Positions 14,724 through 28,501 of a stretch of 64,000 nt of DNA are shown one piece after another. The notes below the pieces were generated by a model. The model searched no databases and was not told where the DNA came from. It saw only the letters and a list, made by a program, of their open reading frames with translations. The DNA is from Polaromonas sp. 39-63-25 (GTDB taxonomy: Bacteria > Pseudomonadota > Gammaproteobacteria > Burkholderiales > Burkholderiaceae_C): the NCBI RefSeq assembly GCF_002278925.1, contig NZ_NCJH01000008.1:124001-188000 (forward strand). Reading direction: 5' to 3'. A program made the position numbers and the translations under genes. Numbering within the stretch: position 1 is the stretch's first letter; each line of letters starts with the position of its first letter.

Positions 14724-15991
14724 GGCCGCTGGGGCAGGCCCGGCGTTGCAGGGTCGCCGTGTTTTTGAACCAGTGTCCAGGCGACCGCGGAAATGCACAC
14801 GCTCCAGAACAACACGCCATAAGCCAGCGGGAACACCGTGCCGTCCAGGTGGCTGCCCAGCCAGCCGCCCATGGCAAAGGCCGCCAGCATCATCAGAAAG
14901 CCGTTCAGTGCCGAAGCTGCGCCGGCCGCACCCGGAAAGGGGCTGACGGCGCCGCTCTGGCTGCAGGGCTGGTGCACACCGTGCGCAAACACAAACAGGT
15001 AATAGGGCAACAGCAGGGCCCAGACGTTATGGACGCCGGCCCAGGCCAGGGTACTGATCAGCAGGCCGCCGCTGAGCGTCAGGACGCCGGCAATCGCCAC
15101 CGAGCGCCGCACCCCAAAACGCGGCAGCAACCGGCGGCACCAGAAGGTGCCCAGCACATAGACAAAGGACATCGAAAACATCACCAGGCCGTACTGCGTC
15201 TTGCTCAGCCCCAACACGCCGATAAACACAAAGGACGAGGCGGCCAGAAAGGTGAACAACCCGCCGTAGGAAGCCGTGGACAGCGCCGAAAAGGCCACAA
15301 AGGTCGGGTTGCGCACAATCGTCCACCAGGTGCGCACCAGCGTGGCCGGCTCCAGCGCGCGCGGGTTTTTCAGCGTCAGGGTTTCCTTGAAGCGCAGCGC
15401 AATCATGGCCAGCGCTACGGCGCCGAACACGGCCAGTGCCAGCAGCGCCGCGCGCCAGTTGAAAACGTCCGAGAGCAGGCCGCCAAGCGGCGCGCTCAGG
15501 CAGGCAATCACGCCCAGGCCGCTCAGGCCGCGGGACATGGCGCGTGCGGCGGCCACCGGCGTGTAGAGGTCGCGCACGATGGCGCGCGCGCACATGACGG
15601 CCGCCCCCATGGCCGCGCCCTGCACGATGCGCCAGGTGATCAGCAGCGCCATGGACGGCGCGAGCGCGGCGCCTATGGCCGCGAGCACGTAGGCGCCCAG
15701 GCCCCACAGCAGGATGGGCCGGCGGCCAAAACGGTCGGACAGCGGGCCCCAGAAAAGCTGGGAAACGCCAAACGCCAGCAGCAGCCCGGTGAGCGTGAGC
15801 TGGGCCTGCGCCATCGGCGCCCCAAAACCTTCCGTCAGGGCGGGCAGCGCCGGCAAATAGAGGTCGGTGGTGATGGGCTGGATGCCGAGCAGCAGGGTCA
15901 GCACCAGCACAATCAGCGCGGGCGACATGGCTGGCGGTTCGGCGGTCACCGCGGGGGCGGCGGAGTCAGGAGCAGGGGGTGTGGCGGACAT
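14720..15991 (-). CDS. Bcr/CflA-family MFS drug efflux transporter
   Basis: This 423-residue transporter has about 12 hydrophobic segments. It carries the MFS signature [14 protein letters not shown] between helices 2 and 3, and [15 protein letters not shown] typical of Bcr/CflA (DHA1) antiporters. Members export bicyclomycin, chloramphenicol or sulfonamides by proton antiport; the substrate here is unknown. It is the first gene of a coupled pair with miaA. Confidence 0.9.
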
Positions 15992-16059
15992 TGATCTGAG
16001 CGTATCAGATCGCTGCGCGCCGGGTGGCTGCGCGGAGCGGGTGCCTTGCCAGCGCTGGG

Positions 16060-16911
16060 CTATTTCAGGCTGAACAGCTGCGTCAGCGCCTGGCGGTACT
16101 GCGCCTGGCCGACGGAGTTGGTGTTGTGGTGCGATCCGCCCTCGACCAGCATGAACAGCTTGGGCTGCGCGGCGGCCTCGTACAGCTTGCGCCCGAGGTC
16201 GGGGGCGATCAGCCGGTCTTCACCGCCGTGCACCACCAGCAGCGGCGAGCCGATCTTGCCGACCTTGCGGGCGGCCTCGAAACGCTGGGTGATCAGCAGC
16301 GACACCGGCATCCAGCCCCATTTGGAGGTGCTGACCACGTCGGCAATGGAGGTGAAGGTGCCTTCGACAATCGTGCCGCTTTCGTCGTTGACCTCGGTGG
16401 CGAGGTTGATGGCAATCGGGCCGCCCAGCGAGTGGCCAAAGACATAACGGGGGCGGTCGGGATATTTCTTGGCGAGCCAGTCCCAGGCGGCGCGGGCATC
16501 CTCGTAGGCGGACTCTTCCGAGGGCAGGGCCTGGGTGCTTTTGCCGAAGCCACGGTAGTCCACGCCCAACACCGAAAAGCCCAGCTCCTGCATGCGGCGC
16601 ATGCGCGGGGCCGAGCCGGTCACATTGAAGCGGGCACCGTGCAGATAAAGCAGCACGGGGGCCTTTGGCTGTTCGGCGGGCAGCCACAGCCCGTGCAGGG
16701 TGGCCTGTTCGTCACCGCTGGCTTTGGCCTTGAACCCTATCCAGACGTCTTCCATGCCTTCGGCAGCGGCCAGGCCGCCGCTCCAGCTGCGGTCGCTGGG
16801 CTGGAAGATCCAGGCGCGCTGCCGCTCGTCGAGCGTGGCGCAGCCCGCGAGAACGGCAATGCCGAGAGCCAGTACGGTGGCGGCGAGCAGGGTCCAGCGT
16901 TTCATAAGCAT
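16060..16911 (-). CDS. Lipoprotein alpha/beta hydrolase
   Basis: About 283 residues start at ATG 16911 (a second ATG is six bases downstream). The N-terminus MKRWTLLAATVLALGIAVLA is followed by a cysteine (LAGC lipobox), so the mature protein should be anchored to a membrane. The nucleophile is in FGHSLGGP, with an Asp in VVHGGEDRLIAP and a His in VEGGSHHN. It belongs to the COG1073-type serine hydrolases. The substrate is unknown. Confidence 0.88.
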   Translation of the reverse strand: MLMKRWTLLAATVLALGIAVLAGCATLDERQRAWIFQPSDRSWSGGLAAAEGMEDVWIGFKAKASGDEQATLHGLWLPAEQPKAPVLLYLHGARFNVTGSAPRMRRMQELGFSVLGVDYRGFGKSTQALPSEESAYEDARAAWDWLAKKYPDRPRYVFGHSLGGPIAINLATEVNDESGTIVEGTFTSIADVVSTSKWGWMPVSLLITQRFEAARKVGKIGSPLLVVHGGEDRLIAPDLGRKLYEAAAQPKLFMLVEGGSHHNTNSVGQAQYRQALTQLFSLK

Positions 16912-17104
16912 GACTGAGTGGCCAGAGAGGTAAAAAGTTCGCGTTATCAGGAATTTTCTACGGCAAGCAGGCTTTCTGCCGTGTCTATCGTGTGAAGCTC
17001 CCGCAAAGCCGGCGGCAAGGTGCGGGATAAGCCCTTGCAACAGCGCTTCATCAAACCGTCACTTGCATGCACCATAGTGGGACATTCATTCACGGAGACG
17101 ACCC

Positions 17105-18286
17105 ATGGTTTCATTGCGCATCCTCGCGGCCGGTCTGGCCGCTGTCGGCCTCCTGGGCCTGGCCGCCTGTGCCGGCGGCTCGACCACCGCTGCAACGGGT
17201 CGTTATCCCACGCTGGACGGCAAGGCGCCGCTGGTCATCGGGCATCGCGGCGCCAGCGGTTATCTGCCGGAGCACACGCTGGAATCGTACAAACGCGCCA
17301 TCGAGCTGGGCGCTGATTTCATCGAGCCCGATGTGGTGGCCACCAAAGACGGTGAACTCGTGGTGCGGCACGAGCCCAACATCACGGCCACCACCGACGT
17401 GTCGACCCGGCCCGAGTTTGCGAGCCGCAAGACCACCCGGCAGGTCGATGGGGTGGCGGAAACCGGCTGGTTCACCACCGACCTGACGCTGGCCGAGATC
17501 AAGACCCTGCGTACCCGGCAGCCCATGGCCGAGCGCGACCAATCCCACAACGGTAAATACGCGATCCCGACGCTGCGCGAGGTGCTCGAACTGGCACGCA
17601 CCGAAGGCGCACGCGCCGGCCGCACGGTCGGTGTCTACCCCGAGACCAAACACCCGACCTACCACGTGAACGCCGGGCTGGCGCTGGAAGACCGCTTGCT
17701 CGCGCTGCTGGCCGAGTACGGCTACACCACGAAAAGTTCGCCGGTCATCGTGCAGTCGTTTGAAGTGGCCAACCTGAAATACCTGCGCAGCAAGACGTCC
17801 GTGCGTTTGGTGCAGCTGATCGACGGCGACGGGGTGAACGCCCAGGGCCAGGTCACGCTCAAGCCGCCGTTCGACAAGCCTTACGACTTCGCCCTTGCCA
17901 ACAACAGCCGCACTTTTGCCGACCTGCTGACGCCCGCCGGCCTGAAGGAGATCAAAACCTACGCCGACGGCATCGGCCCCTGGAAGGCCTACCTGTTGCC
18001 CGCGCGGCAGGTGGACGCCAACGGCGACGGCAAACCCGACGACCTCAATGGCGACGGCCTGACCGACGAGCGCGACCGCGTGTTGCTGCCGCCCACGCCG
18101 GTGGTGAAAGACGCACACGCTGCGGGCCTGTTCGTGCACCCGTTTACCTTCCGCAGCGAGGCCAAACGCCTCGTGTCCGACTACCGCGGCGATGCGGTGG
18201 CCGAGTACCGGAAGTTTTTCGAGATGGGCGTGGACGGTGTGTTCAGCGACTTTCCGGACGCGGCCGTGAAGGCGCGGGCGCGCTGA
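17105..18286 (+). CDS. glpQ: Periplasmic glycerophosphodiester phosphodiesterase, lipoprotein
   Basis: This 393-residue protein is preceded by GGAG ten bases before the ATG. The signal LGLAACAGG has a lipobox-like LAAC. The catalytic start [19 protein letters not shown] holds the first active-site His and Arg, and [20 protein letters not shown] supplies metal-binding Glu/Asp and the second His. It hydrolyses glycerophosphodiesters to glycerol-3-phosphate and alcohol. Around residues 303-325 an Asp-rich insert with two DxNxDGxxDD-type loops resembles a calcium-binding loop, consistent with a calcium-dependent GlpQ. Confidence 0.93.
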
Positions 18287-18320
18287 GGCTGCTTCGTGTC
18301 AGGTGCGGCGGTCTGCCCGG

Positions 18321-19094
18321 CTACCTGGCATCGAGCAGTTTGATTTCATTTATCTCAAGGTTGGGCGGTTGCACAAGCAGGGCGCTGTCCAGCCATTGCA
18401 GCAGGCGGTCGCCATACACGTGGCACTTCTTTCGTTCCAGCTTGGCTATGCAGCGCTCGCCCTCCAGCACAATCAATCCGCGCACGATGGATTCGCGCGT
18501 CGTGCCCAGGAGTTCGGCCAAGGCGGTGTGCGTGGGTAACTGGACGACGGGACTGCCCTGAACGTCGCTCAGGAGTAACAGGGTGTAGGCGAGCTGCTTG
18601 ACCAGCGTGCGCAGGCGCATGGCGGCCGACCAATCGGCTGTCAGCCCGAAGGAGTGTATGCAGCCGTTGATCAGATGCTCGCGAAACGAGTCAGCCCAAG
18701 GGGCTTTCTCTTCCAGATGCTGAATGGAAAGTTCACAGTAACGACCCGCCGATACCGCAACCCCCGATACCTGGTTGTGCCGTCCAAAGCAGCTGTACAT
18801 CCCAAATACCGATCCGCGGCCAGCGATGCCGATAGGGCGACGGCGGCCATCCTTGCCGGTACGGTAACCAAACACGGTACCCACCTTGACGATCTTCACA
18901 CTGGATGCCATTTCTCCTTCCGGGGAAATTTCGTCTCCATTGCGGAATGCACTCTCGCGAACCAGGGGTGAAGCAATTGCAAAGTCTTCGGGCGCCAGCA
19001 TTCCCACGATGCAGTTCGATCGGGTCGCGCAGGCCATGCAGTTGGTGTGGCCGGGCTGCCCGGTCGGGCTTGTATTTTTGGGGGAGCGACTCAT
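18321..19094 (-). CDS. FNR-like Crp-family regulator with four cluster-type cysteines
   Basis: This 257-residue protein has N-terminal C19-x2-C22-x5-C28, the same spacing as FNR C20, C23 and C29. C120 in GRYCELSIQHLEE aligns with FNR C122 in its SMVCEIPFE region. This predicts an oxygen- or NO-sensitive [4Fe-4S] cluster. The cNMP-like barrel spans about 36-130, and the winged helix is near 190-250. The recognition helix reads TTRESIVRGL. It keeps Glu and Arg but has the Arg-Glu order of CRP and lacks the FNR Ser-Arg pair, so its operator may not be a classical FNR box. It lies divergent from the GTPase/roadblock/globin operon and is its likely regulator. Confidence 0.88.
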   Translation of the reverse strand: MSRSPKNTSPTGQPGHTNCMACATRSNCIVGMLAPEDFAIASPLVRESAFRNGDEISPEGEMASSVKIVKVGTVFGYRTGKDGRRRPIGIAGRGSVFGMYSCFGRHNQVSGVAVSAGRYCELSIQHLEEKAPWADSFREHLINGCIHSFGLTADWSAAMRLRTLVKQLAYTLLLLSDVQGSPVVQLPTHTALAELLGTTRESIVRGLIVLEGERCIAKLERKKCHVYGDRLLQWLDSALLVQPPNLEINEIKLLDAR

Positions 19095-19508
19095 GGGGCC
19101 TTTTTTTTCCGCAATCCAAATAGCTAAGTAGCCGACCCTGATGGCGTGTATTTGTAATTATTTTTACATCAATTTACCTTGATGTCTGGATGCTGCTGTT
19201 GAAAATGTGACCAATCCGACAGTTTGAAAGCTTTTTGCCGCACGCGTGCGGACGTCGATGCTGATCGCGTTGCGTGCCGGATACGAAGCTGCCCCGTGAT
19301 CAGCTTGCCGCTTCGCAAAAAAACGCTTGATTGCTCACAGTGGTGTTCTTTTCTCCGCCGGGTCACGGCCGATGAGCTCCGCAACGCAATGCTTTAGGCG
19401 TCAAATGATTACAAATTGAGATAGGTCAAAAAACTTTCCCTGGATAAGTGCTTTGGAATCTGTATCCGTTGCGGACGCATGTGCTTCGTAAAAATTGGAA
19501 ACATGGTT
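19095..19508. promoter_or_regulatory. Divergent control region of FNR-like regulator and GTPase/globin operon
   Basis: This is an AT-richer 410-bp gap. Two dyads stand out. CATCAA-N6-TTGATG is at 19167-19184. TTGAG-ATAG-GTCAA is at 19416-19429, matching 8 of 10 FNR/DNR-type positions and lying about 80 bases before the chosen operon start. No ORF here looks real. Confidence 0.55.
19416..19429. promoter_or_regulatory. Candidate FNR/DNR-type operator
   Basis: TTGAGATAGGTCAA is close to TTGAT-N4-(A/G)TCAA. It sits in the promoter zone of the operon starting at 19509. The regulator's altered recognition helix makes the match suggestive only. Confidence 0.4.
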
Positions 19509-20144
19509 ATGAAAACACGATCGCCCTTAAGCAACGCGCTTCACCAGGCAGCGAATCACGCCGTACCCAGCCTGTTTCAGATTGATGGCTGCGGCAGCGT
19601 TTCGGTCTATCCGGAGCAGCGCTGCTATGTGACGGACATCCAGAACTGGGATGCGGCCTATCAGTCCCATCCCGAGCGGATCACGATCAAGTCGGTAGCT
19701 TGGGGCCAGCCGCCAAGCGGCGCCTTGCCGCTGATGGAGTTGCAGTGGCGTGCGGCCTACCACTGCGCGCTGCAGAGTCAACAGTCCGAGGTGGAAGTCA
19801 ATGATCTGATCCGGCTTCGGTCCTGGCCCAACCTCACGAGGTTGCCGATTGAGCTGGTGGCGCCGGTGACGCAGATCTGCGCGCTGTTGTGGCGCAAGCC
19901 TGCGGTTGGATACCTGATCCCGCGGGTGCTCGATGCCGATGCAACGCAGGTTCGCGCCTTGCTGGAAGTTCTGCAGGGCTTTGGTCATATCAAGGTGTCC
20001 AGGACGGTGCTGGGTCCACAGCCTGCGGCATCTCCAGACGCCGGAGAAAGCTTGCTGGACACCGGGGATTCGCAGGGTGATCACATGGCCCAGCCTGCCG
20101 GCACGCTGGTCGGCAAGTTATGGCGCCGGCTGGTCGGCCATTGA
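19509..20144 (+). CDS. Operon gene 1: unknown protein, possible winged-helix C-terminus
   Basis: About 211 residues start at ATG 19509 with GGAA eight bases upstream; ATG 19479 and 19503 are alternatives. I do not recognise a family. There is no signal peptide or membrane helix. Residues about 118-165 (VAPVTQICALLWRKPA, then LDADATQVRALLEVLQGFG) look like a helical or winged-helix module, similar in pattern to the N-terminal part of operon gene 7. It is followed after 11 bases by the GTPase gene, so it is probably a partner of the GTPase/roadblock complex. Confidence 0.75.
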   Translation: MKTRSPLSNALHQAANHAVPSLFQIDGCGSVSVYPEQRCYVTDIQNWDAAYQSHPERITIKSVAWGQPPSGALPLMELQWRAAYHCALQSQQSEVEVNDLIRLRSWPNLTRLPIELVAPVTQICALLWRKPAVGYLIPRVLDADATQVRALLEVLQGFGHIKVSRTVLGPQPAASPDAGESLLDTGDSQGDHMAQPAGTLVGKLWRRLVGH

Positions 20145-20155
20145 GAGGTATCGTC

Positions 20156-20746
20156 ATGGAATGGGCAATCCTCTTTGTGGGGCCGGTAGGCGCGGGCAAG
20201 ACGCAGGCCATACGGACCATCAGCGACATCGACGTCGTCGATACCGAGGCGGACGCGACTGACGAGACCGCGCTGCTCAAGCAAAACACCACCGTGGCCA
20301 TGGACATGGGTGTGATGCTGCTGGGCACGCATGACAAGGTGCGGCTTTATGGGGCGCCCGGGCAGGACCGTTTCGACTTCATGTGGGACATTCTTCTAGA
20401 GCAGTCCAGGGGGGTGGTTTTGTTCATCGATCACAGCCGCCCGAATCCCGTGAACGATCTCGCGTATTACATGGAGCAACTGACCCGGCGCATGGAGGGC
20501 CGGGTTCTTCCTGTGGTCATCGGCGTGACCCACACAGACATGGGTAGACCAGCCAATCTCGATGTCTATCGCGATTTCCTGGCAGAGCCCGCTTCGATCA
20601 CTCGCCGACAAGCCGTGCCCGTGCTGGAGACCGATGCCCGCAGCCTGCACGACGTGAAAACGCTGCTGTTGGCACTGACCTCCATGCTGGACATGAATGA
20701 GCGCTTCCCCGTGCGGTCATCGGCTGGCGGGGGGCTGCATGCCTGA
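20156..20746 (+). CDS. Operon gene 2: COG2229/MglA-like small GTPase
   Basis: This encodes 196 residues with an AGAGG site seven bases before ATG 20156. The P-loop GPVGAGKT is at residues 9-16. A DxxG-equivalent region is YGAPGQDRF, and the G4 position reads GVTHTD in place of NKxD. This matches bacterial COG2229 GTPases, relatives of MglA that pair with roadblock/LC7 proteins acting as GTPase-activating or scaffold subunits. Four roadblock-like proteins are encoded downstream. The gene overlaps the next one by eight bases. Confidence 0.88.
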   Translation: MEWAILFVGPVGAGKTQAIRTISDIDVVDTEADATDETALLKQNTTVAMDMGVMLLGTHDKVRLYGAPGQDRFDFMWDILLEQSRGVVLFIDHSRPNPVNDLAYYMEQLTRRMEGRVLPVVIGVTHTDMGRPANLDVYRDFLAEPASITRRQAVPVLETDARSLHDVKTLLLALTSMLDMNERFPVRSSAGGGLHA

Positions 20747-22115
20747 TCCCGGCATTCTCGAACTGGTGGACTATGGCGTGGCGTTTGGTGACCGCGCGGT
20801 TCTGCGCTCTGTCAGTTTTTCTATGCCGGTGCTGGGCTGCACGGTGTTGCTCGGGCCTTCGGGAACGGGGAAGTCCACACTGCTGCGCACCCTGGCGGCC
20901 TGCAACCACGCCAACCCGGCGCTGCGTACCTGGGGCGCTGCGCGCTACAAGGCGCAGCCCTGCACGGCGGACCATCACCCGACCCTGATGATGCAGCGTT
21001 CCAGGCTGCTGGTGTCGAATGTTCTCGAAAACCTCGTGTGTGAACTTCCCGGCCGTTCATCACTGACCCGCTCGATGCAGGTGGAGATGGTGGCAGAGAT
21101 GCTCACCCGCTATGGCCAGAACCACTTGCTCGACGCCTTGTCCCAGAAGGTGATAGAGCGCAGTCTCGGCGAGCAGCGCGTGGTTTCCCTGCTGCGCATG
21201 CTGATGGCCAATCCCCCGCTTTTGATGGTCGATGAACCGACCACCGAACTCGATGCGGACGCCGCCGAGTCGGTACTCGGGCTGCTCGAGCAGCTGTCCA
21301 CCGAACGCGCCGTTCTTGTCGTGCTGCACCACCTGCAGCAAGCCAGGCGGCTGGCCGGGCAAGTCGTACTGCTGGCCAATGGCGTGGTCGAAGAGGCTGC
21401 GCCGGGTGAAGGCTTCTTCTCAGCGCCGCGCAGCGAGTGCGCCAGGGCGTTTTTGCGTACAGGGTCCTGCCCCGAGTTTGATGGCGCGGCGCTGGTGGCT
21501 CAGGCCGGGCCTGCTCCGGTCGAGCCGGCCTTCACCGAAGCGCCGCCAGCGCTACATCCCCGCAGCGCGGCCTATGGCCCGCGTGGCTTTCTCTGGCTCC
21601 TGCCTGGCCATCTCGCGGGGACGCCCTGGCCCGGTGTGGTGCATGACGTTCGTTATGACCTCGAGGCCTTGCGCTCTGTGGGCGTCACTCGCCTGATCAC
21701 GCTCACCGAGACACCCTTCGACGCGACGCTTGCTGGCGAATATGGCATCGCCTGCACTTTCAGTCCGATGCCGGACATGGCGCCGCCTACGCTGTCACAA
21801 GGCCTTGACCTGTGCCGGCAGATTGACGCCTGCATCACGCGGGGCGAGGTGGTTGCCGTGCACTGCCGTGCCGGACTGGGGCGAACCGGGACCGTGCTCG
21901 CCGCCTACTGGTTGTGGCGCGCCGCCGGACGTATTGATGCACCGAAGGCGCTGGACGATGTGCGCCGCATTCACGCGGGCTGGGTTCAGTCCAGCGCGCA
22001 GGTTGAATTTCTGGAGAAGTTTGCACTGGTCGTTGCAAACGCGGATTCCACCCCGGATTCCGTTGACGACCCGAGCTCGGCGCGAGACGTCGCCGGACTC
22101 GCCATTCACTGTTAG
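20739..22115 (+). CDS. Operon gene 3: ABC ATPase fused to a tyrosine/dual-specificity phosphatase
   Basis: This is a 458-residue fusion. The N-terminal ABC ATPase (about 1-235) has Walker A GPSGTGKST at 39-47, Walker B LLMVDEPTTELD and switch His in VVLHH. The signature is degenerate, RSLGEQR instead of LSGGQ. From about residue 285 a phosphatase domain follows, with the P-loop HCRAGLGRTG (nucleophile C376, R382) and a likely general acid D346 in PMPDMAPP. No transmembrane partner is encoded nearby, so the ATPase half probably is not a transporter. It may act as a regulatory ATPase linked to protein dephosphorylation. Such a fusion is unfamiliar to me. Confidence 0.87.
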   Translation: MPDPGILELVDYGVAFGDRAVLRSVSFSMPVLGCTVLLGPSGTGKSTLLRTLAACNHANPALRTWGAARYKAQPCTADHHPTLMMQRSRLLVSNVLENLVCELPGRSSLTRSMQVEMVAEMLTRYGQNHLLDALSQKVIERSLGEQRVVSLLRMLMANPPLLMVDEPTTELDADAAESVLGLLEQLSTERAVLVVLHHLQQARRLAGQVVLLANGVVEEAAPGEGFFSAPRSECARAFLRTGSCPEFDGAALVAQAGPAPVEPAFTEAPPALHPRSAAYGPRGFLWLLPGHLAGTPWPGVVHDVRYDLEALRSVGVTRLITLTETPFDATLAGEYGIACTFSPMPDMAPPTLSQGLDLCRQIDACITRGEVVAVHCRAGLGRTGTVLAAYWLWRAAGRIDAPKALDDVRRIHAGWVQSSAQVEFLEKFALVVANADSTPDSVDDPSSARDVAGLAIHC

Positions 22116-22148
22116 GCAACGTCAAACCACCCAAAAGGAAAATTTGCA

Positions 22149-22550
22149 ATGAGCTTAGATAATGCGCTTCAGAAGGCCGTGACGGCCGTGCCCGAATGTG
22201 TGGCCGCCGGGTACGTGGATCTTTCGTCCGGCATGCTGTTGGGCATCAAGTCGGTTGACTCCCATCCCAGCCAGGTTATCGAACTGCTCGCGGCCGCGAC
22301 CGCCGACCTGTTTCAGGGGCCGAACGTGCAGGCGATTGAGAAACTGTTCAGGTCTGCCCGTGGCGTGCCGGAAAACGGCCAGCACTACTTTCAGGAAATC
22401 ATTGTCAACAGTGACAACCTGATCCACGTCTTCCTGCGCGGCAAGAAGCAGGAACAGGTGGCGACTTTCGTGTGCCGCAAGGGCGCCAACCTGGGCATGG
22501 TGCTCACCAAGGCCCGCTCCATCATGGTTGAAATTGAAGCTTCCTTTTAA
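22149..22550 (+). CDS. Operon gene 4: small protein, probable roadblock-like fold
   Basis: This encodes 133 residues with an AAAAGGAAAA site upstream. The order of predicted elements fits the roadblock/LC7 fold by pattern: a helix, two strands (GYVDLSSGMLLGIKS), a long helix (VIELLAAATADLFQ), two or three strands (QEIIVNSDNLIHVFLR, VATFVCRKGANLG) and a terminal helix. It lacks strong sequence identity to MglB that I can see. It probably binds the operon's GTPase. Confidence 0.7.
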   Translation: MSLDNALQKAVTAVPECVAAGYVDLSSGMLLGIKSVDSHPSQVIELLAAATADLFQGPNVQAIEKLFRSARGVPENGQHYFQEIIVNSDNLIHVFLRGKKQEQVATFVCRKGANLGMVLTKARSIMVEIEASF

Positions 22551-22586
22551 TCGGGACCGCAGCCTGCGGCCCTGACCGAAACACCC

Positions 22587-22606
22587 GCGCCGCAAAACTG
22601 CGGCGC
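22587..22606. other. Intercistronic stem-loop
   Basis: An 8-bp perfect stem GCGCCGCA / TGCGGCGC encloses an AAAC loop in the 75-bp gap between operon genes 4 and 5. There is no T-tract, so it is more likely an mRNA stability or processing element than a terminator. Confidence 0.5.
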
Positions 22607-22625
22607 AGTTCGAGGACACCATGTC

Positions 22626-23039
22626 ATGACGATGGATGCCGATAAATCCCCCGCGGAACAGTTCGCGCACAAGGCCCGTGGGCTGTTGCGAGGGCTGCAG
22701 GGCGCTTCAGACAGCGTGAGATCCTGCGCGTTGGTCTCCTACGACGGCTTGATAGTCGCGTCTGTGCTTGCCGAAGGTGTGGATGCGGATCGCTTCGGTG
22801 CCATGTGTGCTTCGCTATTGGCCTTGTCCACCCGCGCAGCCAAAGAAGTGGAGCGAGGCGTGTTGCGCCAGATCATTCTGGATGGGGAGCACGGGCCCGT
22901 GCTGCTCACGCGGGCCGGGGCCAGTGGGGTGCTCGCGGTTGCGGCCGATCCCACCAAGAACCTTGGAAAACTGATTCTGGATACCCGGACGACGGCCAGT
23001 GCGCTGGCCAGCCTGCAACTGGGGGGAATGGCGGCATGA
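22626..23039 (+). CDS. Operon gene 5: roadblock/LC7 domain protein
   Basis: This 137-residue protein has a recognisable MglB-like roadblock pattern. After an N-terminal helix comes SCALVSYDGLIVASVLAEG, then helix ADRFGAMCASLLALSTRAAK, strand GVLRQIILDGEHGPVLLTRA and VLAVAADPTKNLGKL. GAGGA lies about nine bases before the ATG. In other systems such proteins act as GAPs or scaffolds for small GTPases. Its stop overlaps the next start as ATGA. Confidence 0.85.
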   Translation: MTMDADKSPAEQFAHKARGLLRGLQGASDSVRSCALVSYDGLIVASVLAEGVDADRFGAMCASLLALSTRAAKEVERGVLRQIILDGEHGPVLLTRAGASGVLAVAADPTKNLGKLILDTRTTASALASLQLGGMAA

Positions 23040-24232
23040 CTGAAGCTGTTCCTGTCCATATCGACGGCGTCGAGTTGACGCTGCGCGCGAACGAAAATCT
23101 TCTCGATGCCTGCCAGCGCAGCGCGATCGAGCTGCCGTTTTCCTGCCGTGCCGGCAGCTGTCACACCTGTCTGTTGCGCTGCACCGAGGGTGTGGTGCCC
23201 GCGCAGGCGCAGCGCGGGCTCCGGCCCTCGCTGCGCAGCCTGGGCTATCTGCTGGCATGTCAGTGCCGGCCAACGGGTGCCATGACGCTGACGCGTCCCA
23301 GCCAGGCCGACATGGTCACCTCGTGCCAGCTGCTGACATCTGCGGGGACCGACGCATCCTTCCGATTCATGCAATTCGAAACCGCCCGGCTGCTGACCTG
23401 CCAGCCGGGTCAGCGCCTGCTGCTGGTGACCGACGCGGAGCCCGCCCCATTGATCGAGGTCACGGCGACCTGTCCCGAGACGCACATGGTCGATGCGCTC
23501 ATGCATTGCCCGCCGGGTGGCATCTTCCCGTCCTGGCTGGATGCAGCCGACGCCTTTGGCCATGAGTTCGAAGTGCGCGGTCCGGTCGACGGCGCGGGCG
23601 ATGGTCTCGCGGGGAAGGCCGATGTGCCGGTGGAGTCGCCGGCGCCAGCGCCTGACCCGGCGCTCTGGACAGAGCTCGATGGCGGTGCCACTGTCAGGGC
23701 AGTGCTCGAGGATTTCTACGGCCAGGTTTATGAGGATCCGCTGCTGGCCCCGTTTTTCCAGAAGGTCACGCGGGATCGTTCCATAGACAAACAATATTCT
23801 TTTCTCAAGCAGCTGATGACAGGTGAACGCGTGTATTTCGGCGACCGGCCGCGCAACGCCCACCACTGGATGGTAATTTCGAATGAGCTTTTCGACTACC
23901 GGCAGGCGCTCATGGTCCGCACCCTGGAAAAGCATGGCCTGACTGCGCTGCAGATCGCGCGCTGGACACGCCTGGAGCTGCATTACCGGCGCGATATCGT
24001 CAAGTCCGCTGCGTGGCCGCGCCATGTGAACGGGGTGGACCTGCCGCTTGACGGCTACGCCAACGAAACACTTTCGGCCGGCACCTTGTGCGACCACTGC
24101 GGGGCCGTGATCGACGCCGGCACCCTGGTGAAATACCATGTGCGGTTGGGCCATATCAGTTGCCCGGGCTGTGCTTCAGGCGGACCGCAGGCGCTTGCCA
24201 GCAGCCACGGCGCATGTGATGCAGCCGCCTGA
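23036..24232 (+). CDS. Operon gene 6: [2Fe-2S] ferredoxin - degenerate FAD barrel - truncated globin - zinc ribbon fusion
   Basis: This is a 398-residue multidomain sensor or oxidoreductase. Residues 1-90 form a plant-type ferredoxin, with cysteines 37, 42 and 45 (CRAGSCHTC) and a fourth at 75 or 77 in LACQC. Residues about 95-190 follow the pattern of an FNR-type FAD barrel (CQPGQRLLLV, then PPGGIFPSWL), but the RxYS flavin motif is absent. Residues about 215-325 match a truncated haemoglobin (VLEDFYGQVYEDPLLAPFF), with likely proximal His 276 in AHHWMVISNELF. The C-terminus has two CxxC pairs (CDHC, CPGC). No NAD-binding domain exists, so electrons may come from a separate reductase, or the protein may only sense O2, NO or redox state. 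Confidence 0.87.
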   Translation: MTEAVPVHIDGVELTLRANENLLDACQRSAIELPFSCRAGSCHTCLLRCTEGVVPAQAQRGLRPSLRSLGYLLACQCRPTGAMTLTRPSQADMVTSCQLLTSAGTDASFRFMQFETARLLTCQPGQRLLLVTDAEPAPLIEVTATCPETHMVDALMHCPPGGIFPSWLDAADAFGHEFEVRGPVDGAGDGLAGKADVPVESPAPAPDPALWTELDGGATVRAVLEDFYGQVYEDPLLAPFFQKVTRDRSIDKQYSFLKQLMTGERVYFGDRPRNAHHWMVISNELFDYRQALMVRTLEKHGLTALQIARWTRLELHYRRDIVKSAAWPRHVNGVDLPLDGYANETLSAGTLCDHCGAVIDAGTLVKYHVRLGHISCPGCASGGPQALASSHGACDAAA

Positions 24233-24800
24233 AACGCTTCGCTTCATCAGGGTCACCGCGACGGGTGTGCTGCATTGGCTGGCGCAGCCCGACGCAGGGC
24301 CGGAGCGCGCGGTGATCGAATGCCTGCTGTCCATGAATGACCGGCATCCGGTCAATTTGCACGCCATGAGCGCCAGCCTGTCCTGGCCCGTGGCACAACT
24401 GGCCAGGGTGCTGTTTTCCCTGAATCGCTCACAGGGAATTCAGGTTGGCACGGATGTCCCCCTGCGAGATGAATCTGGTGGCGACGCGCTGGCCGGCCTG
24501 GACGACGATCTGCAGACGCTGGCGGGCAGCGGCCTGCGGGCATTGCTGGCCAGCAATGACGGACTTTGCCTGGCGGCCGTTGGATGGTCTGATGAAGAAG
24601 CTGAGCAGATGGCCGGCAGGCTTGCTTCTGGGAGCGGGCAGGCAAACTCCGCACCAGTGCTGACCTGGTTTTTTGGACGCGAGCGCGTGCTGCTTTGCAC
24701 CGATGCAGGTGTCGGTCAGCGTGATCCCGCCTGGGTCGGTGTGGCACGCCGGCTGTTGCGGGCCTGTGGCCCCCTGGGGCTTGAGCCCGGGCTCGCCTGA
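24219..24800 (+). CDS. Operon gene 7: winged-helix-like plus roadblock-like protein
   Basis: This encodes 193 residues from ATG 24219, overlapping gene 6 by 14 bases. The N-terminal 85 residues look helical and winged-helix-like (ERAVIECLLSMNDRHPVNL, VAQLARVLFSLNRSQGI). The C-terminal part resembles a roadblock domain (LRALLASNDGLCLAAVGW, then DEEAEQMAGRLA and VLLCTDAG). I recognise no named family. The stop and the next start overlap by one base. Confidence 0.75.
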   Translation: MQPPETLRFIRVTATGVLHWLAQPDAGPERAVIECLLSMNDRHPVNLHAMSASLSWPVAQLARVLFSLNRSQGIQVGTDVPLRDESGGDALAGLDDDLQTLAGSGLRALLASNDGLCLAAVGWSDEEAEQMAGRLASGSGQANSAPVLTWFFGRERVLLCTDAGVGQRDPAWVGVARRLLRACGPLGLEPGLA

Positions 24801-25204
24801 TGGCGTCGGATGAATTCCGCGCGGCATGGGCGCGCCTGAATGAGGACTGCCCGCAGGTTCAGGGGGCCGTTCTGGCCACCCGCGAGGGGCTGCTGCTGTC
24901 TGCGAGCGGATGCCTTCAAGACGAAGTGTCGGCGGCCAGCGCTGCCGACCTGGCCGAGCGTGTGGAGCAGAATCTGTCTCTCATGGTTTCGACGCAGTGT
25001 TCCGAGCTGCTGATCTGGGCCGCCCCCTCGGTCTGGTACCTGACACGGCTGGCGGTACCTTGCGTGCTGATGGTCTGCGCTACGCCGGCATGTCGCACGG
25101 GCGCGCTGCGGCTGGCCGGACAAAACGTCGCCCGCCAACTGTCGCAGCTCCTGGTTCAGGCCGAGCTCAGCGCCCGCGAAGAAAGAGACTGTCCAGCTCC
25201 CTGA
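24800..25204 (+). CDS. Operon gene 8: roadblock/LC7-like protein
   Basis: This 134-residue protein has the roadblock pattern. It shows VQGAVLATREGLLLSASG, helix ADLAERVEQNLSLMV, strand CSELLIWAAPSVWYLTRL, VPCVLMVCATPACRTGAL and a terminal helix. It begins at the last base of the gene 7 stop. Its 3' end overlaps the convergent mutL gene by 38 bases. It closes the operon. Confidence 0.78.
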   Translation: MASDEFRAAWARLNEDCPQVQGAVLATREGLLLSASGCLQDEVSAASAADLAERVEQNLSLMVSTQCSELLIWAAPSVWYLTRLAVPCVLMVCATPACRTGALRLAGQNVARQLSQLLVQAELSAREERDCPAP

Positions 25205-27089
25205 TCGTGAGCTGGCGCCAGGTCGGGCGGCCGTGGTTGCACTGGTCGGAACGGTCGGTCGCTTCCATCTGGCGCAACAGGCCGTTCATTTCATCGATGG
25301 TGAGTTTGCGGTTGGCGCGCACCGCGCCGTGGCAGGCCATGGTCGAGAGCAACTCGTTTTGCGCGCGCTGGATCACCGTGCTGGCGTCGTGTTGCGCCAG
25401 CTCGGCCAGCACGCTGCGCGCCAGTTCCACCGCATCACCCTGCGCCAGGCTGGTCGGCACGGCACGTACCGCCAGCGTGCGCGGCGAAAAGGGCGTGATT
25501 TCCAGACCCAGCGCTTTCAGGGTGTCGACATGCGCCTCGGAGGCGGCGACTTCCTGCGGCGTGGCGGCAAAGGTGGCCGGTATCAGCAAGGGCTGGCTGG
25601 CAATGCTGGCGCTGTCCATCTGGTTTTTGAGCCGCTCGTAGACGATACGTTCATGGGCGGCGTGCATGTCCACAATCACCAGACCCTGGGTGTTTTCGGC
25701 CAGGATGTAGATGCCCTGCAGCTGGGCGACGGCGCGGCCCAGCGGCCATTCGCCGGGGGGCAGATCGGTGTTGTTCGGGCCTGCATTTTCCGTTTGCCCT
25801 GAGCCTGTCGAAGGGCCGTCCGGTGAGGCACCCTGAGTCCCAGTGGCCATTCCAACCTGCGTGTTTTGCGGTCTGACGGGCCACATCGCCTCAAAGTCAG
25901 AGACACGCGGGTCCTGGCGGTAAGCCTGATGCGCTCCAAAATTGATAGCTGGTTGCGCCCAGGGGGAAAGGGCTGGTGGCTGATTTGATTCAAAATTTTG
26001 TGCAGGCGTGCCGCTGGCCGCTGCCAATGCGGCTGCGGCCGCGCGCGGTGCCGCCAGGGCGTTCTCGACCGCGTGCCGCACCGCCTGGTGCACTTCCCGG
26101 CTGTCACGAAAACGCACCTCGATCTTGGTCGGGTGCACATTGACGTCCACCCGCGTCGGGTCCATGGTGACGTAGAGCGCGTAGACCGGCTGGCGGTGGC
26201 CGTGCAGCACGTCCTCGTAGGCGCTGCGCGCGGCGTGGGTCATCACCTTGTCGCGCACATAACGGCCGTTGACGTAGGCAAACTGCTGGTCGGCGCGCGA
26301 ACGCGCCGCATCCGGAATGCCGGCGCGGCCGGTCACGCGCAGGGCGCCGGCGCTGTAGTCCACCGCCACGCTCTGCTCCAGCAATTCGCTGCCCAGCACA
26401 TCGGCCAGGCGCTGGTCGTGCGCAGCCTCGCCGCTGCAGGCGCGCCACTGCTCGACGAGTTTGCCCTCGTGCCAGATCGCAAAACCCACATCGGGCCGCA
26501 CCAGCGCGTGGCGGCGCACGGCTTCAATGCAGTGCGCCAGCTCGGTCGCGTCGGTTTTCAGAAACTTGCGTCGTGCCGGCGTGGCATAAAACAGCTCGCG
26601 CACCTCCACCGTCGTGCCGCGCGCGCGCGCGGCCGGTGTCAGTTCGCCGGAGCGGCCGTCGAGCTGCCAGGCATGCGCCGCGTCGCCGCTGGCCGAGGCG
26701 TCGGAACTGCGCGACAGCAGGCTCATGTCGGCAATCGAATTGATGGCGGCCAGCGCCTCGCCGCGAAAACCCATGGTGCCCACGGATTCGAGGTCCTGCA
26801 GCGAGGCGATCTTGCTGGTGGCGTGGCGGCGCAGCGCAATCGCCAGTTCCTCGCGCGGAATGCCCAGGCCGTCGTCCTCGACGGAAATCAGCCGCACGCC
26901 GCCGGCCAGCAGCCGCACCGTGACCTGCGTGGCACCGGCGTCGAGCGCGTTGTCGACCAGTTCGCGCACGACGGAGGCCGGGCGCTCCACCACCTCGCCG
27001 GCAGCAATCTGGCTGACGAGTTCGTCGGGCAGTTCGCGGATGGGGCGGCGGGGGGCTGGCAGGGGGGTGAGGGGGGTGGCAGGGGTCAC
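25167..27089 (-). CDS. mutL: DNA mismatch repair protein MutL
   Basis: This encodes 640 residues. The GHKL ATPase head carries IAAGEVVERPASVVRELVDN (catalytic Glu and Asn), DDGLGI, TSKI and GFRGEAL. The dimerisation domain lies after about residue 440. MutL couples MutS mismatch recognition to downstream repair. There is no DQHAxxE endonuclease motif (the equivalent reads VIVDMHAAHE), as expected in bacteria that use a Dam/MutH-independent or non-nicking MutL; I cannot tell which applies. The linker between domains contains two translated repeat copies (25791-25822 and 25934-25976), an evident site of tolerated insertions. Confidence 0.95.
   Translation of the reverse strand: MTPATPLTPLPAPRRPIRELPDELVSQIAAGEVVERPASVVRELVDNALDAGATQVTVRLLAGGVRLISVEDDGLGIPREELAIALRRHATSKIASLQDLESVGTMGFRGEALAAINSIADMSLLSRSSDASASGDAAHAWQLDGRSGELTPAARARGTTVEVRELFYATPARRKFLKTDATELAHCIEAVRRHALVRPDVGFAIWHEGKLVEQWRACSGEAAHDQRLADVLGSELLEQSVAVDYSAGALRVTGRAGIPDAARSRADQQFAYVNGRYVRDKVMTHAARSAYEDVLHGHRQPVYALYVTMDPTRVDVNVHPTKIEVRFRDSREVHQAVRHAVENALAAPRAAAAALAAASGTPAQNFESNQPPALSPWAQPAINFGAHQAYRQDPRVSDFEAMWPVRPQNTQVGMATGTQGASPDGPSTGSGQTENAGPNNTDLPPGEWPLGRAVAQLQGIYILAENTQGLVIVDMHAAHERIVYERLKNQMDSASIASQPLLIPATFAATPQEVAASEAHVDTLKALGLEITPFSPRTLAVRAVPTSLAQGDAVELARSVLAELAQHDASTVIQRAQNELLSTMACHGAVRANRKLTIDEMNGLLRQMEATDRSDQCNHGRPTWRQLTIRELDSLFLRGR
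25791..25822 (+). repeat. CTGAGCCTGTCGAA-family repeat inside mutL linker
   Basis: CCCTGAGCCTGTCGAAGGGC is the core shared with copies at 44801, 49771 and 54211. On the mutL strand it is translated as GPSTGSGQTE. Confidence 0.75.
25934..25976 (-). repeat. AGCTAT-family repeat inside mutL linker
   Basis: The complement reads CCAGCCCTTTCCCCCTGGGC, then GCAACCAGCTATCAATTTTG, matching the family core. It is translated as part of the low-conservation linker (PPALSPWAQPAINFGAH). Confidence 0.7.
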
Positions 27090-27169
27090 CTTGTGATTCT
27101 AGAGGGAAGTGTTTTTGCGGGCTTATGGGGTGGCTTCTGGGTGATTTGGTTTGCCTGGGCCTGCTGGCC

Positions 27170-27380
27170 GGGGTTGCCCGGCGGCAAGTAACTTTCTTTT
27201 GCGTCGCCAAAAGAAAGTCACCAAAGAAAAGGCGACCCTGCTGTCTGCGACCCCTGCGCTACGCTCCGGGGCAACCTGCGGTGCTCGGTCCAGCCGGGGC
27301 CGGGCTCGAACTCGCTTCGCTCAGACAATCGCCCGTCCTTGTCCGTCTGGACCTCCGCTCCTCGGCGCAGCCAGAAGGGG
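27170..27380 (+). repeat. ~210-bp interspersed repeat, copy A
   Basis: It begins GGTTGCCCGGCGGCAAGTAA, runs through CGTCGCCAAAAGAAAGTCAC and GGGGCAACCTGCGGTGCTCG, and ends near GCTCCTCGGCGCAGCC. It matches copy C at 32325 closely and copy B at 27470 in inverted orientation. Open frames through it (VTFFCVAKRKSPKKRR) are typical spurious genes in this bacterial family. Confidence 0.75.
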
Positions 27381-27420
27381 GGTGGGGTCGGGTGCGGGTT
27401 CGGATCCGCAATCGGGTTCC

Positions 27421-27447
27421 GGCGAGGACGCGCAAAGCGCGTCCTCG
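27421..27447. other. Perfect hairpin between repeat copies A and B
   Basis: A 12-bp stem GCGAGGACGCGC / GCGCGTCCTCGC with an AAA loop sits midway between the two inverted copies. There is no T-tract. It may be the centre of a larger palindromic mobile unit. Confidence 0.6.
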
Positions 27448-27469
27448 CCTCCCTGCACCCGCACCTGAA

Positions 27470-27710
27470 TTCATTCCCCCACCCGTTAGGCTGGGCCGAG
27501 GAGCGCAGGCACAAGCGGATCAGGGCTCGCGATTGTCTGAGCCGAAGGCGAGTTCGAGCGAGACCCCGCTTTTGCCGAGCACCGCAGGTTGCCCGCAGCG
27601 AAGCGGAGGGACCCAGACTGTCGGGTCGCCTTCTCTTTGCTTACTTTCTCTTGGCGACGCAAGAGAAAGTGAGTCGCCCGCCGGGGCGAGTCCCGGCCAG
27701 CAGGCAGACT
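27470..27710 (-). repeat. ~210-bp interspersed repeat, copy B (inverted)
   Basis: The complement contains CTTGCGTCGCCAAGAGAAAG, GGGCAACCTGCGGTGCTCGG and CTGCGCTCCTCGGCCCAGCC, the landmarks of copies A and C. With copy A it makes a roughly 540-bp inverted pair in the 660-bp gap between mutL and the DedA gene. I see no real gene in the gap. Confidence 0.72.
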
Positions 27711-27750
27711 GAAGGGGGTCGATGCAAACCACCATGTCAAAATCACCCCC

Positions 27751-28404
27751 ATGGAACTACTTGCTTTTCTGATGGACTTCATCCTTCATGTGGACAAACA
27801 CCTGGAGGCTTTTACACAAAGCTACGGAACCTGGGTTTATGCCTTGCTCTTCCTCATCATTTTTGTGGAAACCGGCGTGGTCGTCATGCCTTTCCTGCCC
27901 GGCGATTCCCTGTTGTTCGTGGTGGGCGCCCTCTGCGGGGTGGGCCTGCTGAGCCTGCCGATGGCCATCGCCGTGATGCTGGTGGCAGCCATCCTGGGCG
28001 ACCAGTGCAACTATTCGATAGGCCGGCACTTCGGGCCCAAGGTGTTCCAGTGGGAGCAATCGCGGTTTTTCAACAAGCGCGCGTTCAACCAGGCGCACGA
28101 GTTTTACGAGCGTTATGGCGGCGTCACTATCATCATTGCGCGCTTCATGCCTTTCATCCGCACGTTCGCGCCTTTTGTGGCGGGCGTGGCCGAGATGGGC
28201 CGCACCAAGTTCACCGCCTACAACGTGATCGGCGCGCTGATCTGGGTGGTGGGCCTGTGCACGGCCGGTTATTTCTTCGGCAACCTGCCGTGGGTGCAGG
28301 CCAACCTGAGCAAGATCATCTGGGCCATGATCCTGATTCCCGGGCTGTTTGTGTTGTACGGCGCCTGGAAAGCCAGCCGGTCTGCCCGGCAATCGGCCCA
28401 CTGA
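27751..28404 (+). CDS. DedA family inner-membrane protein
   Basis: This 217-residue protein has about five hydrophobic segments. It carries the DedA landmarks FVETGVVVMPFLPGDSLLF, GDQCNYSIGRHFG and the amphipathic RFMPFIRTFAPFVAGV motif with its conserved arginines. DedA proteins (YqjA/YghB/UptA group) flip undecaprenyl phosphate or phospholipids and support proton-motive-force homeostasis. It is about 100 bases upstream of the acyl-CoA synthetase on the same strand. Confidence 0.92.
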   Translation: MELLAFLMDFILHVDKHLEAFTQSYGTWVYALLFLIIFVETGVVVMPFLPGDSLLFVVGALCGVGLLSLPMAIAVMLVAAILGDQCNYSIGRHFGPKVFQWEQSRFFNKRAFNQAHEFYERYGGVTIIIARFMPFIRTFAPFVAGVAEMGRTKFTAYNVIGALIWVVGLCTAGYFFGNLPWVQANLSKIIWAMILIPGLFVLYGAWKASRSARQSAH

Positions 28405-28501
28405 CGGGTTTTTTTACCCGCTGTATTGACCCAGGGCAGGGCGGGCGCGTCTGCGCGGTGCACATTGCCTTGGAGAACTCCCCGTTTCCAACAAGCTGCC
28501 C

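What the first reader, a model, noticed from the sequence alone, without database searches (positions are those of the whole stretch)
18321..25204. Candidate new signalling system: FNR-like regulator facing a GTPase / roadblock / ABC-phosphatase / ferredoxin-globin operon
Eight tightly packed genes (overlaps of 1-14 bases at four of the seven junctions) combine a COG2229/MglA-like GTPase, four roadblock-like proteins, an ABC ATPase-phosphatase fusion, a ferredoxin-globin-zinc-ribbon fusion and one unknown protein. GTPase plus roadblock pairs are known from MglA/MglB polarity control and Streptomyces conservons. I know of no described system that adds a globin-ferredoxin and a phosphatase-coupled ABC ATPase. 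With a four-cysteine FNR-like regulator divergent, a model is that O2, NO or redox state is read by the globin/ferredoxin and passed to the GTPase switch and to dephosphorylation. Domain calls are seen; the shared pathway is inference.
Basis: partly seen in the sequence, partly recalled or inferred. Interest (0 to 1): 0.92.

Follow-up and report, generated by a model that had tools for sequence, protein, structure and literature searches.

The report
Globin-linked MglA-type GTPase signalling operon
This is a real, conserved bacterial operon in which a Ras-like switch protein and its regulator-type partners are packed with a phosphatase and a haem-type globin, which looks like a way for the cell to let oxygen, nitric oxide or redox state act on a GTPase switch, although this has not been tested.

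Summary
RB3 and RB4 are only weak roadblock matches.

The base is already described: it fits the beta/gamma-proteobacterial "Group 3 MglA" systems (receiver/winged-helix protein, MglA-type GTPase, MglB-type roadblocks; PMC4316618). New is the elaboration. RB1, a conserved roadblock-fold protein that Pfam misses, sits beside an ABC-ATPase/phosphatase fusion in 35 of 53 loci. A globin-Zn-ribbon protein was found only in RB1-bearing genomes: 7 of 7 among 200 family genomes (16 have RB1), five with the gene away from RB1; 4 of 4 among 61 genus genomes (5 have RB1). Five relatives of the globin protein carry a full FAD/NAD reductase. The window copy lacks its motifs, and one relative keeps only globin plus Zn ribbon, which points to sensing rather than catalysis.

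An FNR-type operator (19416-19429) is conserved in three Polaromonas genomes; the divergent regulator was not seen beyond them.

Verdict: a new variant of a known kind, with an inferred gas/redox input and no biochemistry.

The parts
18321..19094 (-). Crp/FNR-type regulator, four FNR-spaced cysteines (C19, C22, C28, C120; spacing of FNR recalled)
   Evidence: Pfam cNMP_binding, HTH_Crp_2; NCBIfam FixK and FnrL models match only far below their cut-offs; the four cysteines are kept in L046 and L047, the fifth (C102) is not kept in L047
19416..19429 (.). FNR-type operator TTGAGATAGGTCAA, 73 bases before the U1 start codon
   Evidence: 8 of 10 consensus positions; aligned boxes in L046 and L047 have 9 of 10; the only TTGA-N6-TCAA in the 64 kb window, though 29 sites there reach 8 of 10 by the looser count
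19503..20144 (+). U1: shortened relative of the Group 3 MglA partner protein, C-terminal winged-helix-type part
   Evidence: No Pfam or NCBIfam match; AF2 model mean pLDDT 79.4, helices 116-131, 138-143, 147-159 and strand 163-166; longer homologues have an extra N-terminal part that looks receiver-like by sight
20156..20746 (+). MglA-type small GTPase (G1 GPVGAGKT, G2 TTVAMD, G3 GAPGQ, G4 THTD, G5 DAR)
   Evidence: one match in the genome at E<=0.001
20739..22115 (+). ABC ATPase with degenerate signature fused to a DSP-type phosphatase (HCRAGLGRTG)
   Evidence: HCX5R in 35 of 35 and LSGGQ in 0 of 35 RB1-adjacent relatives
22149..22550 (+). RB1: highly conserved roadblock-fold protein, common element of the locus family
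   Evidence: AF2 model and Foldseek; 66-95% identity to 13 of 15 relatives, the other two 58 and 28%
22626..23039 (+). RB2: MglB-type roadblock protein
   Evidence: Robl_LC7 5.2e-16
23036..24232 (+). FGZ: [2Fe-2S] ferredoxin, remnant stretch, group 1 truncated globin, Zn ribbon
   Evidence: CX4CX2C, HHWM with the proximal-type His, two CXXC pairs; FAD and NAD motifs not found
24219..24800 (+). RB3: N-terminal part of unknown kind plus roadblock-like C-terminus
   Evidence: Weak Robl_LC7 0.053; homologues in 6 of 53 loci
24800..25204 (+). RB4: roadblock-like protein
   Evidence: Weak Robl_LC7 0.0047; RB4 or an RB2-like gene follows RB3 in those 6 loci

Best explanation
This is a Group 3 MglA-type GTPase/roadblock system that has been extended by a phosphatase output and a haem-globin input. 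Shown by sequence and co-occurrence: a small GTPase with Group 3 motifs, MglB-type RB2, roadblock-fold RB1, a phosphatase with intact catalytic motif fused to an ABC ATPase without the canonical signature, and a globin-Zn-ribbon protein found only where RB1 is. Inferred: RB1 and RB2 are the platform and GAP-like partners that set the GTPase state; the globin binds O2 or NO, with the ferredoxin keeping its haem reduced, and changes that platform; the GTPase state and nucleotide on the ABC part gate dephosphorylation of an unknown phosphoprotein, while the winged-helix-type protein U1 carries the output to transcription or to a polar machine such as type IV pili. In Polaromonas a divergent FNR-type regulator would place expression under oxygen control.
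For: Group 3 hallmarks in the GTPase: G4 THTD without lysine, G5 DAR, G2 threonine, G3 xxPGQ (definitions). Order U1>GTPase>ABC/PTP>RB1 in 16 loci plus one cut by a contig end, of 53. The globin-Zn part is in 7 of 200 family genomes at E<=1e-25, all among the 16 with RB1 (hypergeometric 5e-9, genomes treated as independent), in five of them away from RB1 (G755 by about 46 kb, the others further or on another contig); 4 of 61 genus genomes, all among the 5 with RB1; 4 of 339 class genomes, all with RB1. ABC/PTP in 14 of 200 family genomes at E<=1e-40, 13 of them with RB1. Reductase motifs are present in 5 FGZ relatives and absent in the window and 10 other distinct copies; L105 keeps only globin plus Zn ribbon, between RB1 and RB2. 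Precedent for a globin fused to a roadblock: HGbRL (PMC4476040, passages read). Conserved FNR-type operator.
Against: RB1 often occurs without the globin (9 of 16 RB1 family genomes had none at E<=1e-25; G832 in the genus has none). ABC/PTP-RB1 stands without a GTPase within 7.5 kb in 16 of 53 loci, so gating of the phosphatase by the GTPase is not general. G679 has the ABC/PTP but no RB1 match. The divergent regulator was seen only in Polaromonas, in 3 of the 5 RB1 genomes of the genus. A sequence search of the GTPase profile against solved structures gave eukaryotic Rab, Sec4 and Ras chains; no MglA was among the 60 of 306 shown, so MglA kinship rests on motifs and operon context. No interaction, ligand or substrate has been tested, and co-occurring genomes are not independent.
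Confidence: 0.5

Rival explanations
1. FGZ is a detoxifying enzyme (NO dioxygenase or similar) that is an output of the signalling system, not its sensor. The reductase-bearing form works like a rearranged flavohaemoglobin, and the window form uses a separate reductase.
For: Five relatives carry FAD (RSYSL) and NAD (GTGTGLAP-type) motifs; in L056 the reductase part matches BenC, MmoC and flavohaemoprotein models; ferredoxin-reductase-type donors for truncated globins are discussed in PMC3820574 (passages read).
Against: The FAD and NAD motifs are missing in the window and ten other distinct copies, L105 has no ferredoxin either, while the globin histidine and the Zn-ribbon cysteines are in every copy not cut by a contig end. 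This pattern suits a sensor better than an enzyme.
Confidence: 0.25
2. The ABC/PTP-RB1 pair is its own phosphatase module, and the GTPase operon merely neighbours it; there is no single pathway.
For: ABC/PTP and RB1 stand without GTPase in 16 of 53 loci, in six of them beside HtrA and two-component genes (HtrA identity checked in L013 only).
Against: The GTPase keeps one fixed place beside ABC/PTP-RB1 in Comamonadaceae, Collimonas, a Rhodocyclaceae and a Nitrosomonadales genome, and RB1 is also beside GTPase-RB2 in 11 loci that lack the ABC/PTP.
Confidence: 0.15
3. An ordinary Group 3 MglA motility/polarity system whose extra genes are accessory, with type IV pili as target.
For: In Snodgrassella, whose mglA is Group 3, a mutation in the orphan mglB-3 gave motile flares on soft agar and better colonisation (PMC11112851, passages read); in L118 receiver, CheW and MCP genes lie beside U1; the window's genome has four PilT-family genes over cut-off.
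Against: No pilus gene was seen by sight among the ORFs of 15000-29000; only L118 was checked for chemosensory genes by Pfam, L120 shows two receiver genes; phosphatase and globin are tied to RB1 too closely to be incidental.
Confidence: 0.1

Closest known systems
Group 3 MglA systems of beta/gamma-Proteobacteria (Wuichet and Sogaard-Andersen, PMC4316618)
   Same: Unknown receiver/winged-helix protein, MglA-type GTPase and MglB-type roadblock encoded together; G4 without lysine, G5 DAR
   Different: Window adds ABC-phosphatase, roadblock RB1, globin protein, RB3 and RB4; its U1 is shorter and lacks the N-terminal part of the longer homologues
mgl genes of Snodgrassella (PMC11112851)
   Same: A Group 3 mglA with several mglB; a motility and colonisation effect of an mglB allele
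   Different: The allele is in an orphan mglB; no phosphatase or globin mentioned in the passages read
HGbRL of Methylacidiphilum (PMC4476040)
   Same: A globin coupled to a roadblock domain, proposed as a sensor
   Different: One polypeptide and a globin related to HGbI; here separate genes and a group 1 truncated globin
Flavohaemoglobin
   Same: Globin with flavin/NAD reductase in the reductase-bearing relatives
   Different: Order reversed, ferredoxin added, truncated globin, Zn ribbon; window lacks the reductase motifs
Streptomyces conservons (Group 2 MglA)
   Same: GTPase plus roadblock plus a protein of unknown function
   Different: No histidine kinase here

Membership tests
Group 3 MglA system | G4 motif without the conserved lysine and G5 DAR | tested here: met
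   THTD and DAR in the window; definition from section 15 of PMC4316618. Relatives vary at G5 (DAR, DGR, DPR, DVR)
Group 3 MglA system | G2 threonine in place of the arginine finger, G3 of GTPGQ type | tested here: met
   TTVAMD and GAPGQ (A for T at one place); many relatives GTPGQ
Group 3 MglA system | Partner protein with receiver-like N-terminus and winged-helix C-terminus | tested here: inconclusive
Group 3 MglA system | One or two coupled MglB proteins | tested here: met
   RB2 Robl_LC7 5e-16; RB1 roadblock fold
Group 3 MglA system | GTPase falls in the Group 3 clade of an MglA tree | not tested
   The paper's sequences were not at hand; no MglA chain among the 60 of 306 solved-structure matches shown
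Group 1 MglA | Arginine finger in G2 and TVPGQ in G3 | tested here: not met
   TTVAMD, GAPGQ
Conservon (Group 2) | Histidine kinase CvnA in the operon | tested here: not met
   No histidine-kinase family listed for the nine proteins
Flavohaemoglobin | Globin followed by FAD and NAD domains in one chain | tested here: not met
   No FAD or NAD motif in the window FGZ, and the globin is C-terminal
Globin-coupled sensor of HGbRL type | Globin and roadblock in one polypeptide | tested here: not met
   Separate genes
FNR regulator | Four cysteines with FNR spacing (spacing recalled) | tested here: met
   C19, C22, C28, C120 in the window, kept in L046 and L047
FNR regulator | DNA-recognition residues of FNR | tested here: inconclusive
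   Recognition helix reads RESIVR in the window against RETISR in E. coli FNR (recalled)
FNR regulator | [4Fe-4S] cluster and O2 response | not testable with these tools
   Needs spectroscopy
ABC transporter | LSGGQ signature and a partner permease | tested here: not met
   LSGGQ in 0 of 35 relatives; no permease family among the nine genes
Known anti-phage defence system | Several proteins matching one system in PADLOC | tested here: not met
   Eight proteins scanned: only the ABC/PTP protein matches, in its ABC part (best mad3 1e-18, then AriA, mad8, ATPase-Toprim, PtuA); the other seven none at 0.001

The most novel reading that the evidence does not exclude
A gas/redox-gated Ras-like signalling pathway of bacteria: a truncated globin reads O2 or NO, roadblock proteins pass the signal to an MglA-type GTPase, and the GTPase and a non-transport ABC ATPase gate a fused dual-specificity-type phosphatase. 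RB1 would be a general roadblock adaptor that different lineages pair with different GTPases (MglA-type here, dynamins in Ruegeria) and different phospho-signalling partners.
Probability: 0.3. Interest if true: 0.88.

Novelty: new variant of a known kind. Interest (0 to 1): 0.7.

Why it matters
I know of no bacterial small-GTPase switch with an established gas or redox input (recall, not a search result), and little function has been assigned to Group 3 MglA systems in the papers I read. The loci found here make it testable: natural variants keep the globin with reductase, with ferredoxin alone, or alone with a Zn ribbon, and other natural variants lack GTPase, phosphatase or globin. If the globin does act on the roadblock/GTPase platform, it would show how a haem protein can control a Ras-like switch without being fused to it, and it would give an RB1/ABC-phosphatase module a first role.

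Tried and rejected
Wholly new system: rejected for the base, because the Group 3 MglA literature covers U1-GTPase-MglB. Defence system: in PADLOC only the ABC part matches. ABC transporter: no permease, degenerate signature. Chance assembly: rejected by gene order and co-occurrence. A search with whole FGZ was uninformative because ferredoxin domains ring widely (222 of 250 genomes); I replaced it by the globin-Zn part (alignment A6). In one search, 10 of 23 RB1 genomes matched A6 at E<=1e-10; I count only three (G058, G231, G613) as FGZ, because the other seven match over little more than the globin or through broken frames. G613 was not among the matches; I cannot tell whether it was among the 339 genomes drawn there. 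Rows dropped: L121 as the record of L051; the RB1 matches in G313 and G593 and the short contig of G052 were not fetched or classified. L120's and most neighbours' names are by sight. Literature: searches listed no paper that I could see to describe the ABC-phosphatase/globin extension; most subscription papers are not held and supplements could not be opened.
Full report
Observation. The nine genes are present at the stated coordinates, and four of the seven junctions overlap by 8, 4, 14 and 1 bases. Pfam supports the regulator, GTPase, ABC plus phosphatase, RB2 and ferredoxin-globin calls; RB3 and RB4 match Robl_LC7 only weakly, and U1 and RB1 match nothing. RB1 has the roadblock fold in an AlphaFold2 model; the best PDB matches are a Streptomyces roadblock domain (E 6e-7, probability 1.00) and then MglB, MglC and Ragulator chains. 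dN/dS of the eight operon genes is 0.06 to 0.39 against L047 and 0.10 to 0.54 against L046, RB3 being the loosest; the regulator has 0.26 and 0.61. The window lies in a 4.83 Mb genome.

Gene order elsewhere. I searched RB1 in 250 order genomes (8 with a match, own included), 369 class genomes (23), 200 family genomes (16), 61 genus genomes (5) and by one scan of genome contigs (11 loci). These draws overlap. From, 54 loci were read around RB1 with profiles made here; L121 repeats L051, leaving 53. By my reading: 17 have ABC/PTP>RB1 with U1 and GTPase before them (16 complete, L049 cut by a contig end); 16 have ABC/PTP and RB1 without GTPase within 7.5 kb (in four of them RB1 comes first); 11 have U1>GTPase>RB2>RB1 without ABC/PTP; two are mixed (L014, L106); seven show RB1 alone (L115 is cut by a contig end; the genomes of L123 and L135 have a second RB1 locus with ABC/PTP). 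The globin protein is adjacent in 10 of 53, RB3 in 6, a YkgJ-like CxxCxxCC protein in 4. All eight genes in the window's order, counting an RB2-like gene in the RB4 place, are seen in L046, L047, L055 and L103 (with an extra YkgJ-like gene in L103). L170 has seven, without the globin.

Co-occurrence. The globin plus Zn-ribbon part (alignment A6) was found in 7 of 200 family genomes at E<=1e-25, all among the 16 with RB1, and in seven different genera. In G632, G699, G736, G755 and G790 it stands away from the RB1 locus, with none of the other operon genes recognised beside it (only generic ABC matches); in G755 the distance is about 46 kb. In G622 two halves lie at contig ends, one of them beside RB1. 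In the genus it is in 4 of 61, all among the 5 with RB1. In the class it is in 4 of 339, all with RB1. Of 23 RB1 genomes searched by handle, three have a strong match: G231 beside RB1, G058 and G613 on another contig. The ABC/PTP protein was found in 14 of 200 family genomes at E<=1e-40, 13 with RB1; G679 is the exception (only eight candidates per genome were scored). Hypergeometric values are 5e-9 (family globin), 1e-5 (genus globin) and 9e-17 (ABC/PTP); they treat related genomes as independent.

What the globin protein shows. The best solved relatives are group 1 truncated haemoglobins. L011, L055, L056, L101 and L103 carry ferredoxin, the FAD motif RSYSL, an NAD motif, globin and Zn ribbon. 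The window and ten other distinct copies keep ferredoxin and globin but show neither motif. L105 has only globin and Zn ribbon, between RB1 and RB2. The HHWM histidine and the four Zn-ribbon cysteines are in every copy that is not cut by a contig end. I read this as loss of catalysis with the haem site kept; it is an inference, and the direction of change was not tested with a tree.

What the phosphatase shows. HCX5R is intact in 35 of 35 RB1-adjacent copies; LSGGQ is present in none of 35. A phosphatase with intact catalytic motif and an altered, non-transport-looking ABC part is the plain reading.

The regulator. Four cysteines at FNR spacing (spacing recalled) are kept in L046 and L047. TTGAGATAGGTCAA at 19416-19429 is the only TTGA-N6-TCAA in the window and is aligned with 9-of-10 FNR boxes in L046 and L047; by the looser 8-of-10 count the window holds 29 sites. 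Of 11 other full loci examined upstream, only L104 holds such a box. The regulator was not seen beside the operon in L170 and L171, further Polaromonas, nor, as a close relative, in the other loci (L108 and L136 have weak matches of 22 and 23 bits to other Crp-type genes). So oxygen control by this gene is at most a Polaromonas trait.

What it is. Wuichet and Sogaard-Andersen describe Group 3 MglA systems of beta/gamma-Proteobacteria: an unknown protein with receiver-like and winged-helix parts, MglA, and one or two MglB, with G4 lacking lysine and G5 DAR (PMC4316618, sections 15 and 18 and passages read). The window GTPase meets these motifs, and U1 has the winged-helix-type part. Against this, the GTPase profile's best solved matches are eukaryotic Rab and Ras chains and no MglA is among the 60 of 306 shown; the clade was not tested. 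In Snodgrassella, with a Group 3 mglA, an orphan mglB allele changed motility on soft agar and colonisation (PMC11112851, passages). HGbRL links a globin to a roadblock in one chain (PMC4476040, passages). Searches listed no report of the phosphatase or globin extension.

How it may work. Shown: parts, order, co-occurrence, intact motifs. Inferred: globin senses O2 or NO, acts on the roadblock platform, sets the GTPase, and gates the phosphatase and the winged-helix output. Against: each of globin, GTPase and phosphatase is missing from some RB1 loci, so the full chain cannot be the general rule. RB1 is the common element; in the two Ruegeria plasmids read it lies among dynamin-type GTPase genes, a protein kinase and an FHA gene, which fits a role as GTPase-associated adaptor.

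Noticed in passing
L184:3907-16369 and L185:3742-16366 (Ruegeria megaplasmids): RB1 relatives (40-43% identity) lie among four annotated dynamin family genes, a protein kinase and an FHA gene; five Ruegeria plasmids have the RB1 relative, two were read.
   Followed up: partly
L108:7443-8957 and similar genes in L110, L111, L112, L113, L115, L116, L119: In eight gamma-type loci a gene with a C-terminal metallophosphatase (Pfam checked in L108 only) and a kinase-like N-terminus by sight lies beside RB1.
   Followed up: partly
L108:2439-15539: By sight, this RB1-RB2-GTPase-U1 locus lies between cbb3-oxidase-like and FNR-like genes on one side and hemN-like and copper-ATPase-like genes on the other, an oxygen-related setting.
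   Followed up: no
L118:2270-6396: Receiver, CheW and MCP genes (pilHIJ-like by sight) stand divergent from U1-GTPase-RB2-RB1; one receiver protein has an N-terminal part that resembles U1's by sight.
   Followed up: partly
L012, L013, L124, L128, L130, L132: ABC/PTP-RB1 pairs stand near an HtrA protease and a response regulator/histidine kinase pair (HtrA checked in L013).
   Followed up: no
L011:10179-10550, L056:13001-13366, L101:8263-8664, L103:7921-8367: A YkgJ-like CxxCxxCC protein accompanies the reductase-bearing globin protein in four of five such loci (Pfam checked in L011).
   Followed up: partly
L107, L109, L056: RB1 is present twice, in tandem.
   Followed up: no
window 18001-20000: G+C is 0.588 here against about 0.65 around, but four other 2 kb bins of the window are as low, so it is weak as a sign of transfer.
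   Followed up: no
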